Shown: positions 3,755 to 38,075 of the stretch, one piece after another
How positions within the stretch are numbered: position 1 is the stretch's first letter
Layout: every line of letters begins with the position of its first letter
IMG/VR virus record: IMGVR_UViG_3300035188_001352
Coordinates: 54,938 to 118,937 of that record
DNA length: 64,000 nt
Strand: one strand, 5' to 3'
Origin: a virus
The notes under the pieces: generated by a model
Database searches by the model: none
What the model was told of the DNA's origin: nothing
What the model saw: only the letters and a program-made list of their open reading frames with translations
Translations under genes and position numbers: made by a program

Positions 3755-3926
3755 ATAATGGTTTTGATTGAACCGTTACTTCATACTTTTGATATAAATC
3801 TTCAGTCCAAATCGTTACTTCAAAATTGTATTCCGAACCGACTGCATGTGTAAATTCCACACGAACATCTTTAGGATTTACGTTATGTTGGATTGCCATC
3901 ATTTCTTGAACTGCTTTATTCTTCAT
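3753..3926 (-). CDS. Small hypothetical protein (57 aa)
   Basis: MKNKAVQEMMAIQHNVNPKD is followed by a beta-rich half. The AACTAAG leader before ATG 3926 is common in this genome. The TAG stop overlaps the 5' end of the His-like tRNA by 2 nt. Function unknown. Confidence 0.62.
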   Translation of the reverse strand: MKNKAVQEMMAIQHNVNPKDVRVEFTHAVGSEYNFEVTIWTEDLYQKYEVTVQSKPL

Positions 3927-3935
3927 CTTAGTTTC

Positions 3936-4295
3936 TCACCATTGTAATTCAAACCAGTATTCAGTAACTGGTGTTTCAATAAAGTTATCATTTTCATCTA
4001 CAATAACACCGAGACCGCCCCGCCGCTGACCATAATGATTTTTGCATTGATCGTGAAATCCAAATCCAATAGCTTTCACTTCACTTCTAATCTTTTCTTG
4101 AAATGGCGTTAATATCACCATACCACGAGCATCAATATTAGGTTCAAATTTAGAAGGAAACTCTTTGGTCAAGTTCAAAACTCGCCCACCGTTAGTAGCA
4201 TGTTCCCTAACTTTCGTATCTAATTTGTCAAGAAATTCTTTGACAACAGTATTGCTAACTTTGGTAAGTTCAACGGCTTCTCTTGCAGTAATCAT
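3936..4295 (-). CDS. Hypothetical protein (119 aa)
   Basis: Start chosen at MITAREAVELTK (4295), which has GAGGGGGAACC upstream; the longer frame to 4337 overlaps the previous gene. The N-terminal helix is followed by a beta-rich region with QRRGGLGVIVDENDNF. A similar short-protein type is common in T4-like phages; no function known to me. Confidence 0.72.
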   Translation of the reverse strand: MITAREAVELTKVSNTVVKEFLDKLDTKVREHATNGGRVLNLTKEFPSKFEPNIDARGMVILTPFQEKIRSEVKAIGFGFHDQCKNHYGQRRGGLGVIVDENDNFIETPVTEYWFELQW

Positions 4296-4779: not shown

Positions 4780-4924
4780 TGACAATATCCTGTAATGCTT
4801 GCATTCCTGTACGTATTGCAAAGTTAACAACATCCAAATCTATCCAAGTATCTTCAGTATCAATTCCATCTTGGATGTCTTTTTCCAATTGCTTTCGCGT
4901 ATTCCATAACTGAGATAAGCTCAT
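4766..4924 (-). CDS. Small hypothetical protein (52 aa)
   Basis: Start MSLSQLWNTRKQLEK at 4924 behind AGGTGTTGG. Acidic and helical. It overlaps the membrane-peptide gene that follows. Function unknown. Confidence 0.65.
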   Translation of the reverse strand: MSLSQLWNTRKQLEKDIQDGIDTEDTWIDLDVVNFAIRTGMQALQDIVNASN

Positions 4925-4943
4925 CTGACCAACACCTCTATCT

Positions 4944-7490: not shown

Positions 7491-8282
7491 ATGAAAAACT
7501 TTAAATATTCAACCAAATGTTCTTGTATTATATGTAATCAAGAAACTACTACGCAAAGTTTAAATAAACATTACGAAAGTCATTTAAAACCAATTATTAC
7601 TAAGACTTGTCCTAAATGTAAATCTATTCATTCTAATCATGGAATCTTTTGTTCTAGAATTTGCGCAAATTCTAGAACACCTTCAGAATTAACTAAACAA
7701 AAAACTGCAAATACTTTAAAAGAAATCTTTTCGGTTAATCCACCAATTAAAAAATATCCAGAGTACACACCAATATCTTTTTGCACTAACTGTTCAAAAC
7801 TTTTTATTGGATTGAAATCCACATGCTCCCAAGAATGTTTAACGGCAAGACTACAGTCAGCCGGCAAAAAATCAGCTTCAGTTCAAATCAAACGCTCAAG
7901 AGATGAAATTACTCTATATGAGCTATGTAAATCTTATTTTTCTAATGTTGAACATAATCAACCAATTTTTGAGGGTTGGGATGCTGACATTATTATTCAT
8001 GATATCAAAACTGCTATTCTCTGGAATGGCCCATGGCATTATAAAGATTTAGGTTTTAACAATCATTCACTCAAACAAGTTCAAAATAGGGATAAACTAA
8101 AAATAAATATCATCAACAAAATGGGATGGAAATCTTTAGTCTTTGAAGATCGTTATTATACTCCAAAACAAGCTTTTAGTTTTTTAATTTCTCAAATATC
8201 TCAAATATCTAAAGAAGCGGGTGCTGGATTCGAACACAGCGTCCACGAGGGTTATGAGCCCTGTAATCTACCACTGATATAA
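7491..8282 (+). CDS. Homing endonuclease (Zn-finger plus Vsr/EDxHD-like nuclease)
   Basis: 263 aa. Three CxxC pairs sit in the N-terminal part (CSCIICNQ, CPKCKS, CTNC with CSQEC), as in zinc-ribbon homing proteins. The C-terminal nuclease core reads GWDADIIIHDIKTAILWNGP, then WHYKD, QNRDK and GWKSLVFED, the layout of Vsr-like/EDxHD homing nucleases. It is alone on the plus strand, has its own late promoter, and its last ~20 codons are antisense to a CAT tRNA. That placement suggests insertion into the tRNA array. Confidence 0.8.
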   Translation: MKNFKYSTKCSCIICNQETTTQSLNKHYESHLKPIITKTCPKCKSIHSNHGIFCSRICANSRTPSELTKQKTANTLKEIFSVNPPIKKYPEYTPISFCTNCSKLFIGLKSTCSQECLTARLQSAGKKSASVQIKRSRDEITLYELCKSYFSNVEHNQPIFEGWDADIIIHDIKTAILWNGPWHYKDLGFNNHSLKQVQNRDKLKINIINKMGWKSLVFEDRYYTPKQAFSFLISQISQISKEAGAGFEHSVHEGYEPCNLPLI

Positions 8283-8287
8283 CCCGC
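8216..8287 (-). tRNA. tRNA with CAT anticodon, no CCA
   Basis: Acceptor GCGGGTT/CACCCGC, short D arm ATC/GAT, stem CAGGG/CCCTC with loop CTCATAA, T loop TTCGAAT on a stem with a bulge. No CCA is encoded. Overlaps the homing endonuclease end in antisense. Confidence 0.72.
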
Positions 8288-8300
8288 ATTTTTATTTAAA

Positions 8301-8391
8301 AGGTTTTATCTCCGGGGCAGGGAATCGAACCCCGCTCACACGGTTTAACAGACCGGCCGCACACCTTGTGCGTTCCCCGGAGATAAAACCT
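8301..8391 (-). repeat. 17-bp perfect inverted repeat extending the tRNA-Asn acceptor
   Basis: 8301-8317 and 8375-8391 are exact reverse complements. The inner 7 bp are the tRNA-Asn acceptor stem and the outer 10 bp lie in the flanks, so the precursor would have a continuous 17-bp end helix in place of CCA and a free leader. Confidence 0.85.
8310..8381 (-). tRNA. tRNA-Asn(GTT), no CCA, extended acceptor
   Basis: Acceptor TCCGGGG/CCCCGGA, D region CGCA/TGCG, stem CCGGT/ACCGT with loop CTGTTAA, T stem CGGGG/CCCTG with TTCGATT, G73. The bases after G73 are ATA, not CCA, and they pair with the 5' leader as part of the 17-bp stem. Confidence 0.88.
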
Positions 8392-24875: not shown

Positions 24876-24991
24876 TACATACTCAGGATAGTAGGATTCG
24901 AACCTACGTCCCGGCATCGGGCTATATTCTCGTTAGAAAACATAGTCCAAATGCCGTGCTAAACCAACCTCAGCTACACCCTGAGTATGTA
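24876..24991 (-). repeat. 12-bp inverted repeat extending the tRNA-Pro acceptor
   Basis: TACATACTCAGG (24876-24887) and CCTGAGTATGTA (24980-24991) are exact reverse complements. The inner bases are part of the tRNA-Pro acceptor, so leader and trailer zip together as in tRNA-Asn. Confidence 0.85.
24883..24983 (-). tRNA. tRNA-Pro(TGG) with 28-nt anticodon-loop insertion
   Basis: Acceptor CAGGGTG/TATCCTG, D arm GCTG/TAGC, anticodon stem CGGCA/TGCCG and T arm GTAGG-TTCGAAT-CCTAC are all intact, but the loop is 35 nt. It begins TTTGG and ends GA; joined they give TTTGGGA, the standard Pro(UGG) loop, so the extra 28 nt sit between anticodon and position 37, an intron-like position. The insert folds as a hairpin (CTAT/ATAG and TTCT/AGAA). 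No CCA is encoded. Confidence 0.75.
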
Positions 24992-30044: not shown

Positions 30045-30180
30045 GTGAATGAATAGGATTCGAACCTATGACATGCTGCTTGGATTTGGATAATCATTTT
30101 CAACGGTTCAACGTGAATTGAACAAAAACTAAAAACGCTATTTTGATGGCGGCTGCTCTACCAACTGAGCTATCATTCAC
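30045..30180 (-). tRNA. tRNA with a 62-nt anticodon-loop insertion
   Basis: Acceptor TGAATGA/TCATTCA with an extra G-1:C73 pair, D arm GCTC/GAGC, anticodon stem GCCGC/GCAGC (one mismatch) and T arm ATAGG-TTCGAAT-CCTAT are intact. The loop is 69 nt and contains its own hairpin GTTCAA/TTGAAC. Joined, the ends give CATCCAA (UCC), but A33 makes this uncertain. The G-1:C73 pair is a His-tRNA feature. No CCA is encoded. Confidence 0.65.
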
Positions 30181-32830: not shown

Positions 32831-33124
32831 CTACTTTGCAGCTTTTTCTGGTCCGCCCCATACGATTGGAGTAGAAGTGACATAACGAAGACCAATATTG
32901 ATGATAGTCAAGATTTGAGCTTGCATACCTTCATCCATGACATAACCGTACTTGCTCTGTAAAAAGAATGCTACAAAAGCTAACAAATTTACCCAGATTG
33001 TCTTGCTTTGAATGATGCGCTTCGCGTCCTGCATATCAATCTTGCCATCATCAAGAATACCCAATGTATCAAGTTGATTAGGTTTTGTGATTTCTTCTGT
33101 AGTGTCAGGTTTTTGAGTGTTCAT
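32831..33124 (-). CDS. Membrane protein (97 aa), possible lysis-related
   Basis: A hydrophilic N-terminal part, then one membrane segment (about residues 44-62, TIWVNLLAFVAFFLQSKYGY) and a second weak hydrophobic stretch near QILTIINIGLRYV. Topology resembles small phage holin-like proteins, and the lipoprotein gene follows. Inference from context. Confidence 0.66.
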   Translation of the reverse strand: MNTQKPDTTEEITKPNQLDTLGILDDGKIDMQDAKRIIQSKTIWVNLLAFVAFFLQSKYGYVMDEGMQAQILTIINIGLRYVTSTPIVWGGPEKAAK

Positions 33125-34630: not shown

Positions 34631-34755
34631 TGACTGAAAGGGGGTTCGAACCCACTACCTACCTCATGCGGACTTACAGGCGCCACTTATCTGTTAGGAA
34701 TCGAACCTAACCCCCTGCCCTAGCTGAGATGCTCTGCCGATTAAGCTATTCAGTC
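34631..34755 (-). tRNA. tRNA with a 51-nt anticodon-loop insertion and a nested T arm
   Basis: Acceptor GACTGAA/TTCAGTC, D arm GCTT/GAGC, anticodon stem TCTCA/TGAGG and T loop TTCGAAC fit a normal tRNA, but the loop has 58 nt. The insert holds a second perfect T-arm sequence TTAGG-TTCGATT-CCTAA and a GGCGCC palindrome. Possible 7-nt loops give CCG or TAG, so the identity is open. A73, no CCA. Confidence 0.62.
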
Positions 34756-34962: not shown

Positions 34963-35409
34963 CTACAGTTCCTCAATCGCAGACTTAGCAAATACTGAAG
35001 CAGCTTTACCATCATACTGACCAGCATAGTTAGACTTCAAGTATGCCATAATCATACCAATTGATGGTGTCTTATCTGCATCAACGACAAACTTGGCAAT
35101 GATGTTTTCAAGCTCGATGTTTGACATTTGCTTTGGCAGATAACTGTCCAAGATTGCAAGTTCGCGTTCGGTCACGATAATCTTATTAACATCTTCAACT
35201 CGTTCGAAGACATCAAGCATTTCAAGAGCACCGGTCTTGAACTTAGTCAAAACTTTCAGTACTTCTTCGTCAGTACTTTCACGACTGCCATCGTCTTTAC
35301 CAGGACGAGAAGCTTCGCCTAACAAAGTTGTTAGATACACTGCTTCAGGCGCTTTAGCCTTGCGAGCTTCAAGCGAACGGTCTTTGATTTGTTGTAGTAA
35401 TGAAGTCAT
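34963..35409 (-). CDS. YqeY (GatB/Yqey-domain) protein
   Basis: 148 aa. LLQQIKDRSLEARKAKAPEA, VYLTTLLGEASRPGKDDG, EVLKVLTKFKTG and LAILDSYLPKQMSNIELENI are hallmark YqeY segments. YqeY resembles the tail domain of the GatB subunit of the Asp/Glu-tRNA amidotransferase and may bind tRNA. Here it is the only full domain of that type and could act on phage tRNAs (inference). Confidence 0.9.
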   Translation of the reverse strand: MTSLLQQIKDRSLEARKAKAPEAVYLTTLLGEASRPGKDDGSRESTDEEVLKVLTKFKTGALEMLDVFERVEDVNKIIVTERELAILDSYLPKQMSNIELENIIAKFVVDADKTPSIGMIMAYLKSNYAGQYDGKAASVFAKSAIEEL

Positions 35410-37669: not shown

Positions 37670-38075
37670 GGACATCACTTATGGACTTTACTCTCAAAAA
37701 CTGACAGACTATATAATTGATTTCGCTTAGGTGTAACTTATTGATTTTATTACTCGAAAAACTGACAGACTAAGGGTATATATTATATTTAGTTGTCTCT
37801 CCCTCTTCTTCATTTTCATATCATTTTCTCTTTTACTTCTGGTTTGTCTTTTTCTAAGTAGTTGATTTTATTACTAAAAATATTTATCATTATCTTCGTA
37901 ACTTATTGATTTATATACTAGTTTTCAAACACATCATTTTCCATGACTAATCACTCGGCAATTTTTGAAGAAAAATGAGGATTTTGAAGAAAATCATATT
38001 TTGATGTTTATGGGTGTCATAAATAGTGATAAAATATACTTATACAAACACTTTCAAACAAAGGTTCTCGTTCAT
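37670..38075. other. 406-bp gene-free region with direct repeats
   Basis: AT-rich with no good gene. A 16-bp direct repeat AAAAACTGACAGACTA occurs at 37696 and 37757. GTAACTTATTGATTT occurs at 37733 and 37898, and TTGATTTTATTACT at 37741 and 37862. A pyrimidine-rich tract runs from about 37795 to 37855. It separates the minus-strand operons from the plus-strand nuclease, so it may be a regulatory or origin-like site. A TATAAAATAT-like -10 lies just before the nuclease gene. Confidence 0.6.

What the first reader, a model, noticed from the sequence alone, without database searches (positions are those of the whole stretch)
34631..34755. tRNA with a 51-nt insertion that carries a second T-arm sequence
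The outer tRNA has normal stems. In its anticodon loop lies TTAGG-TTCGATT-CCTAA, an exact T arm, so one tRNA piece may have entered another, or two halves may be interleaved. Possible joined loops (CCG or UAG) leave the identity open.
Basis: partly seen in the sequence, partly recalled or inferred. Interest (0 to 1): 0.82.

Follow-up and report, generated by a model that had tools for sequence, protein, structure and literature searches.

The report
T5 RNA2-type tRNA-like phage RNA
What looked like a tRNA broken by a stray piece of another tRNA is a distant member of a conserved tRNA-shaped RNA, known in phage T5 only as 'RNA2, stable RNA with unknown functions', which hundreds of phages carry and which has a second T arm where a tRNA has its anticodon.

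Summary
In detail: on the minus strand at 34755-34631 there is a tRNA body with an exact second T arm inside a 58-nt anticodon loop. The reading as a tRNA interrupted by another tRNA does not hold. The same layout, with compensatory changes in every variable helix including the inner T stem, occurs in two relatives of this phage, in Acinetobacter T4-like phages, in environmental giant phages and in hundreds of T5-like phages. In T5 it is annotated as RNA2, 'tRNA-like stable RNA with unknown functions' (AY543070). A covariance model of the insert alone, trained without the window phage or its relatives, finds 34662-34729 at 52 bits (E 1.5e-11); the best chance match scores 18 bits. Removing the insert leaves no usable anticodon: U33 is absent here and in nearly all members. 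The insert is an inside-out tRNA elbow (T arm, then a D-loop-like TGG) on a conserved internal-loop helix. Best reading: a new, remote member of the T5 RNA2 family. It is probably matured like a tRNA and acts as a two-elbow, anticodon-less tRNA mimic (mechanism inferred, about 0.3). The family matches no Rfam 15 model of its own.

The parts
34631..34755 (-). whole tRNA-like RNA, member of the T5 RNA2 family (125 nt)
   Evidence: Rfam tRNA match 35.3 bits; R2 insert model 52 bits; homologs
34749..34755 (-). acceptor stem 5' strand GACTGAA
   Evidence: 7 of 7 pairs with TTCAGTC; compensatory C-G to T-A in L003
34632..34638 (-). acceptor stem 3' strand TTCAGTC; 34631 is the discriminator A, no CCA encoded
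34731..34746 (-). outer D arm GCTTAATCGGCAGAGC with G18G19
   Evidence: sequence
34725..34729 (-). anticodon-stem 5' strand TCTCA
   Evidence: 97% of cells paired over 24 homologs, 59% shuffled, 0 of 2000
34662..34666 (-). anticodon-stem 3' strand TGAGG
34721..34724 (-). variable internal-loop strand GCTA (where 32-35 of a tRNA would be)
   Evidence: varies between homologs, no U33
34667..34669 (-). conserved internal-loop strand GCA opposite GCTA
   Evidence: GCA in all 21 members parsed, ATA in three Acinetobacter phages
34717..34720 (-). helix P4 5' strand GGGC
   Evidence: pairs with GTCC; fourth pair C-G or T-A, six T-T exceptions
34670..34673 (-). helix P4 3' strand GTCC
34674..34677 (-). 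conserved bulge GTAA, opposite the single A at 34716
34713..34715 (-). helix P5 5' strand GGG
   Evidence: first two pairs 39 of 42 paired, shuffled mean 25.3, 0 of 5000
34678..34680 (-). helix P5 3' strand CCT
34694..34710 (-). inner T arm TTAGG-TTCGATT-CCTAA
   Evidence: 95% of cells paired over 24 homologs, 57% shuffled, 0 of 2000; up to four pair types per position
34683..34688 (-). D-loop-like segment AAGTGG after the inner T arm
   Evidence: GG present in all 21 members listed; contact with the inner T loop is inferred
34639..34655 (-). outer T arm GTGGG-TTCGAAC-CCCCT
   Evidence: 96% of cells paired over 24 homologs; one mismatch here

Best explanation
This is a remote member of the phage T5 RNA2 family: a conserved, structured, tRNA-like non-coding RNA carried in the tRNA clusters of large phages. 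Shown: an outer tRNA body (acceptor stem, D arm, T arm) whose anticodon loop is replaced by a conserved lobe, made of helix P4, a one-by-four internal loop A/GTAA, helix P5, an inner T arm and a D-loop-like TGG. Inferred: the inner T loop and TGG dock as in a tRNA elbow but in permuted order, giving a rod with an elbow at each end. Inferred: it is cut from the polycistronic tRNA transcript by host tRNA-maturing enzymes, stays unspliced, and never decodes because it has no anticodon. Proposed mechanism (about 0.3): it is an anticodon-less tRNA mimic that occupies host proteins that grip the tRNA elbow, most plausibly tRNA-cutting defence nucleases that would bind it but find no anticodon loop to cut. 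Family membership I hold at about 0.95; the confidence below covers the statement as a whole.
For: Homologs with compensatory changes: L003, L104 at 78 bits over the full length, further contigs by pattern scan (one stretch, L109, is a chance match), T5-like and Acinetobacter phages. T5 AY543070 annotates the same RNA, 32959-33083, as RNA2, 'tRNA-like stable RNA with unknown functions'. Helix tests over 24 homologs: anticodon stem 97% paired against 59% shuffled, inner T stem 95 against 57, outer T stem 96 against 71, acceptor 83 against 59, none of 2000 shuffles reaching these; P5 39 of 42; slid-column control 96% against 48.5% or less. Blind test: insert-only model R2, trained without window, L003 or L104, hits window 34662-34729 at 52.0 bits, E 1.5e-11; the fourteen true hits score 42 or more, the next match 18.3. 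One match per genome at E 0.001 in all 11 GenBank phages searched whole. No U33 in nearly all members, loop sequence not conserved. Some members encode CCA (AAS21, PM135, PSTCR5, PL1, Sugarland, INF11).
Against: No expression or biochemical data for this phage, and for T5 only the depositors' annotation. The minimum-energy fold of the window sequence differs from the consensus (-41.1 against -24.1 kcal/mol by nearest-neighbour energies), so this copy might misfold unless tertiary contacts or proteins help. The shuffles do not keep relatedness. P4 is mostly invariant, and its fourth pair is T-T in six members. The inner D stem is missing, so the inner elbow rests on the T loop plus a conserved TGG. 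The acceptor stem is poor in several Acinetobacter and environmental members. Nothing tests the decoy idea directly.
Confidence: 0.55

Rival explanations
1. Intron: the 51-nt insert is removed by a protein-dependent or self-splicing step and the outer part becomes a working tRNA.
For: The insert sits in the anticodon loop, and 4 + 3 nt (GCTA and GCA) remain, exactly a 7-nt loop, in most members. P4 of 4 bp between two internal loops recalls the archaeal bulge-helix-bulge.
Against: The joined loop lacks U33 (C at that place in 12 of 16 members with a 4-nt strand) and its sequence is not conserved; several members leave 6 nt. Neither RtcB nor the archaeal-type splicing endonuclease was found in the 118.9-kb record (the record may be incomplete, and the T4 RNA ligase search was uninformative). 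The insert is more conserved than the exons, the reverse of most introns. No member without the insert was found.
Confidence: 0.08
2. Decayed or chimeric tRNA: a recombination accident put one tRNA piece in another and the gene is drifting.
For: The window copy encodes no CCA, has one outer T-stem mismatch and a competing fold. Single-sequence reading suggests it.
Against: Compensatory changes in all variable helices across at least three phage groups, and 414 records, nearly all T5-like phages, with at least 80% of the element.
Confidence: 0.02
3. Processing or assembly aid: the RNA acts in cis or trans in maturing the phage tRNA transcripts, or as a sponge for T-arm-modifying enzymes (TruB, TrmA), rather than against defence.
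For: It lies near tRNA genes in most records seen, and two canonical T arms per molecule would double the substrate for T-loop enzymes.
Against: No conserved neighbouring tRNA; one copy per genome; the strict conservation of GTAARTCCGCA is not explained by T-loop modification alone.
Confidence: 0.2
4. Ligand- or ribosome-directed RNA: the conserved internal loops (A/GTAA, GCA) form a binding site or catalytic centre, and the tRNA body is a delivery or stability scaffold.
For: The unpaired nucleotides are among the most invariant ones in the alignment, as in riboswitches and ribozymes.
Against: No adjacent gene kept across the family as for a riboswitch; no match to any ribozyme or riboswitch family in Rfam.
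Confidence: 0.15

Closest known systems
Phage T5 RNA2 (GenBank AY543070, 32959-33083)
   Same: Same length (125 nt), same order of parts, same conserved insert core (GGGC A ... TTCGATT ... TGG ... GTAAGTCCGCA), covarying helices, position in a tRNA cluster, no encoded CCA.
   Different: Outer acceptor, D and T arm sequences differ; the variable loop strand is GCTA instead of GCGA; the D-loop-like part is AAGTGG instead of GAATGG; lies in a T4-like rather than a T5-like phage.
Phage T4 stable RNAs C and D (species 1 and 2)
   Same: Stable tRNA-sized RNAs, without a stated function, in a T4 tRNA cluster.
   Different: RNA C has only one T arm, RNA D none; model R2 finds no member in T4 (best match is a bare T arm, E 0.98).
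tmRNA
   Same: tRNA acceptor and T arm around a long insert at the anticodon side.
   Different: No conserved tag frame; ARAGORN and Rfam call no tmRNA; the outer D arm is kept with a stem in most members.
Permuted and intron-containing tRNA genes of archaea and algae
   Same: tRNA segments in permuted order and extra sequence in the anticodon loop.
   Different: No decoding anticodon arises on joining; no splicing enzymes found; the insert is the conserved part.

Membership tests
T5 RNA2-type tRNA-like stable RNA | insert core recognised by a model trained on other members only | tested here: met
   R2, window 34662-34729, 52.0 bits, E 1.5e-11; noise at 18.3 bits or less
T5 RNA2-type tRNA-like stable RNA | outer tRNA body: acceptor stem, D arm with GG, T arm | tested here: met
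   Rfam tRNA 35.3 bits over the full model; 7 of 7 acceptor pairs
T5 RNA2-type tRNA-like stable RNA | inner T arm followed by TGG, closed by P4 and P5 with the A/GTAA and GCA internal loops | tested here: met
T5 RNA2-type tRNA-like stable RNA | accumulates as a stable RNA in infection | not testable with these tools
   stated by the depositors for T5; no expression data for this phage
working tRNA (RF00005 sense) | 7-nt anticodon loop with U33 and an anticodon | tested here: not met
   58-nt loop; joined loop GCTAGCA without U33
intron-bearing tRNA (bulge-helix-bulge type) | splicing endonuclease and ligase available | tested here: inconclusive
   none found in the 118.9-kb record, possibly incomplete; T4 ligase search uninformative; host unknown
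intron-bearing tRNA (bulge-helix-bulge type) | joined exons give a decoding loop | tested here: not met
tmRNA | recognised by ARAGORN or Rfam tmRNA models | tested here: not met
T4 RNA C and RNA D | sequence and fold of T4 species 1 or 2 RNA | tested here: not met

The most novel reading that the evidence does not exclude
Large phages of several families share a dedicated two-elbow, anticodon-less tRNA mimic (T5 RNA2 family) whose far end is an inside-out tRNA elbow, and use it to block host proteins that grip tRNAs, such as tRNA-cutting defence nucleases: a non-coding RNA counter-defence hidden among phage tRNA genes.
Probability: 0.3. Interest if true: 0.85.

Novelty: new member of a known kind. 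Interest (0 to 1): 0.6.

Why it matters
T5 RNA2 stands in GenBank as a stable RNA of unknown function, and I found no description of the family in the papers searched or in Rfam 15. The window member, with its relatives, widens it from T5-like phages to T4-like Acinetobacter phages and environmental giant phages, and the divergence gives a covariation-supported fold with an inner permuted elbow. That makes the function testable: the RNA occurs in laboratory phage T5, one copy per genome in the GenBank phages searched, and the conserved parts to mutate are now known. It also warns that tRNA finders report such RNAs as odd intron-bearing tRNAs (with introns allowed, ARAGORN called the L003 copy a tRNA-Ile with an intron) or not at all.

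Tried and rejected
Reading the front 65 nt as an ordinary tRNA with anticodon UAG: the proximal anticodon arm does not pair and no 3' acceptor follows. Reading the insert as a complete circularly permuted tRNA: after the inner T arm there is no acceptor pair. A conserved reading frame in the insert (ATGGTTCTCGTA... in T5): broken in PR1 and absent in the window copy. tRNA-Tyr resemblance of GTAAATCCGC: no U before GTA in most members. Membership in T4 RNA C or D: only one or no T arm. Host chromosomes: six contigs matched the DNA pattern, but none is a member (normal tRNAs followed by other sequence, or no tRNA at all; R2 21 bits or less). Contig L109 in the viral scan is likewise a chance match. 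Near-identical contig G010 shows no match to this locus, but its sequence leaves the window's at 37696, before the RNA, so it is uninformative. The ten literature searches and the one paper opened gave nothing on RNA2 beyond lists of T5 tRNAs.

Full report
WHAT IS THERE. The minus strand of 34631-34755 encodes a tRNA body with a 58-nt anticodon loop that contains a perfect second T arm. cmscan scores the outer part as tRNA, 35.3 bits, and puts the extra sequence in the anticodon loop; ARAGORN does not list it among its 19 tRNA genes. The window lies in a 118.9-kb virus record with T4-like structural genes (my reading of the translations). Nineteen of the 22 other tRNA genes encode CCA; this one does not.

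RELATIVES OF THIS PHAGE. A search with the neighbouring protein (34963-35409) found L003, 77% identical, with a syntenic 124-nt copy. The two differ in the acceptor (C-G to T-A), the anticodon stem (three changed pairs), the inner T stem (TTAGG/CCTAA to ATGGG/CCCAT) and two inner helices (GGGC/GTCC to GGGT/ATCC; GGG/CCT to GAG/CTC), with pairing kept throughout. A model of these two (R1) found a third full-length copy in a 164-kb phage with 81% identical capsid protein (L104, 78.3 bits).

THE WIDER FAMILY. The conserved parts GGTTCRATTCC and GTAARTCCGCA, used as a gapped DNA pattern, hit 13 stretches of viral contigs, 12 of them true members (including this phage and its two relatives) and one chance match. 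Among them were isolates, which led to GenBank: Acinetobacter phages 133, Acj9, AB1I1M-1 and ZZ1 (Straboviridae where classified) and many T5-like phages of Salmonella, Escherichia, Klebsiella, Proteus, Providencia, Pantoea, Erwinia and Pectobacterium. One T5-type query alone covers 80% or more of itself in 414 records. In almost all records the place is unannotated or called a hypothetical protein. The exception found is T5 itself: AY543070 lists it as RNA2, 'tRNA-like stable RNA with unknown functions', among other stable RNAs. Its sequence has the same parts.

FOLD. Parsing 24 members by anchors and shuffling partners between members gives: acceptor 83% paired (shuffled 59%), anticodon stem 97 (59), inner T stem 95 (57), outer T stem 96 (71), none of 2000 shuffles reaching the observed value; P4 90 (86), 12 of 2000. 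One row, L114, was mis-registered by the parser and lowers the observed value for the anticodon stem. P5 pairs in 39 of 42 cells, shuffled 25.3, 0 of 5000. On the ten-sequence alignment A5, sliding the partner by one to three columns drops pairing from 96% to 26-49%. The unpaired parts are among the most conserved: GTAA, GCA and the TGG after the inner T arm. The shuffles do not keep relatedness, so they are a guide; but three or four different pair types at single positions within the inner T stem are hard to get without selection for pairing.

BLIND TEST OF MEMBERSHIP. Model R2 covers only the insert with its closing stem and was trained on ten members outside the window phage, L003 and L104. 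Over 645 kb of window, relatives and tRNA-rich phage DNA it gives fourteen hits of 42 bits or more, all at family members (some of them training sequences), among them the held-out window (52.0 bits, E 1.5e-11), L003 (49.1) and L104 (74.4); the next match scores 18.3. It also found a new member in a 363-kb phage (G003, 55.8 bits) and none in T4. Every one of 11 GenBank phages searched whole has exactly one match at E 0.001.

NOT AN INTERRUPTED TRNA. Joining the two loop strands gives GCTAGCA here, GCGAGCA in T5, CCTTGCA in L003 and so on; the place of U33 is C in 12 of 16, and some members leave six nucleotides. The phage record holds neither RtcB nor an archaeal-type splicing endonuclease, although the record may be incomplete. 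No member without the insert was found. By contrast, the tRNA-Pro at 24883-24983 has a plain hairpin insert and a relative with the empty loop, which is what a real insertion looks like.

MECHANISM. Steps shown: conserved fold and presence in tRNA clusters. Steps inferred: processing by tRNA enzymes (acceptor stem, T arm, CCA in some members), docking of inner T loop and TGG as an elbow, no decoding. The proposal that it occupies elbow-gripping proteins, first of all tRNA-cutting defence nucleases, fits an RNA that looks like a tRNA to elbow readers but offers no anticodon loop. I give it 0.3. A role in maturation or T-loop modification and a ligand- or catalysis-type role remain open. Against all of these: the lowest-energy fold of the window copy alone differs from the family fold, and no RNA data exist for it here.

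NOVELTY. The molecule is a new, remote member of a kind known from T5 by annotation. T5 RNA2 matches no Rfam 15 family at E up to 1, the window copy matches only the tRNA model, and the papers searched do not describe the RNA, though the library lacks most subscription journals, where the older T5 work lies. The cross-family spread and the permuted inner elbow appear not to have been reported, within those limits.

Noticed in passing
window 24883-24983 (-): tRNA-Pro(UGG) with an extra hairpin of about 28 nt (around ACTATGTTTTCTAACGAGAATATAGCC) in the anticodon loop just after UGG and no CCA; relative G015 (L154 about 1510-1585) has the same tRNA with an ordinary TTTGGGG loop, so an occupied and an empty site both exist.
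   Followed up: partly
window 30046-30178 (-): Another tRNA-like RNA: acceptor TGAATGA/TCATTCA, D and T arms, and a long insert at the anticodon side with hairpin GTTCAATTCACGTTGAAC; matches R1 weakly (30.6 bits) and R2 not at all, so not RNA2. Perhaps akin to T5 RNA1 or T4 RNA C.
   Followed up: partly
L005 5462-5580: Directly after a YqeY-like gene: a long helix AGGTTCAC/GTGAACCT enclosing CGGG, a T arm, a short linker, a D arm and CCCG, i.e. a permuted tRNA core without an acceptor stem or outer tRNA. R2 matches only its T arm.
   Followed up: partly
L135 357-441 (Salmonella phage vB_Sen_SG_WM_RUS_R2): A tRNA-Arg gene whose end and downstream DNA are the 3' end of RNA2 (100% over 41 nt), as if a deletion had fused the two; this T5-like phage seems to have lost RNA2.
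   Followed up: no
window 8215-8288 and 8309-8382 (-): Two further tRNA genes without encoded CCA in a genome where nearly all others encode it.
   Followed up: no
L029 (G010) at window position 37696: A contig 99.95% identical to the window over 20.7 kb leaves it abruptly at 37696; most of the tail matches nothing held, either a real rearrangement or an assembly join.
   Followed up: partly
L129 (T5) 2285-2645, 3809-3980, 4839-4941: T5 carries further annotated stable RNAs of unknown function (RNAI, RNAIII, RNA1, RNA2H, RNAIV) that may repay the same comparative treatment.
   Followed up: no
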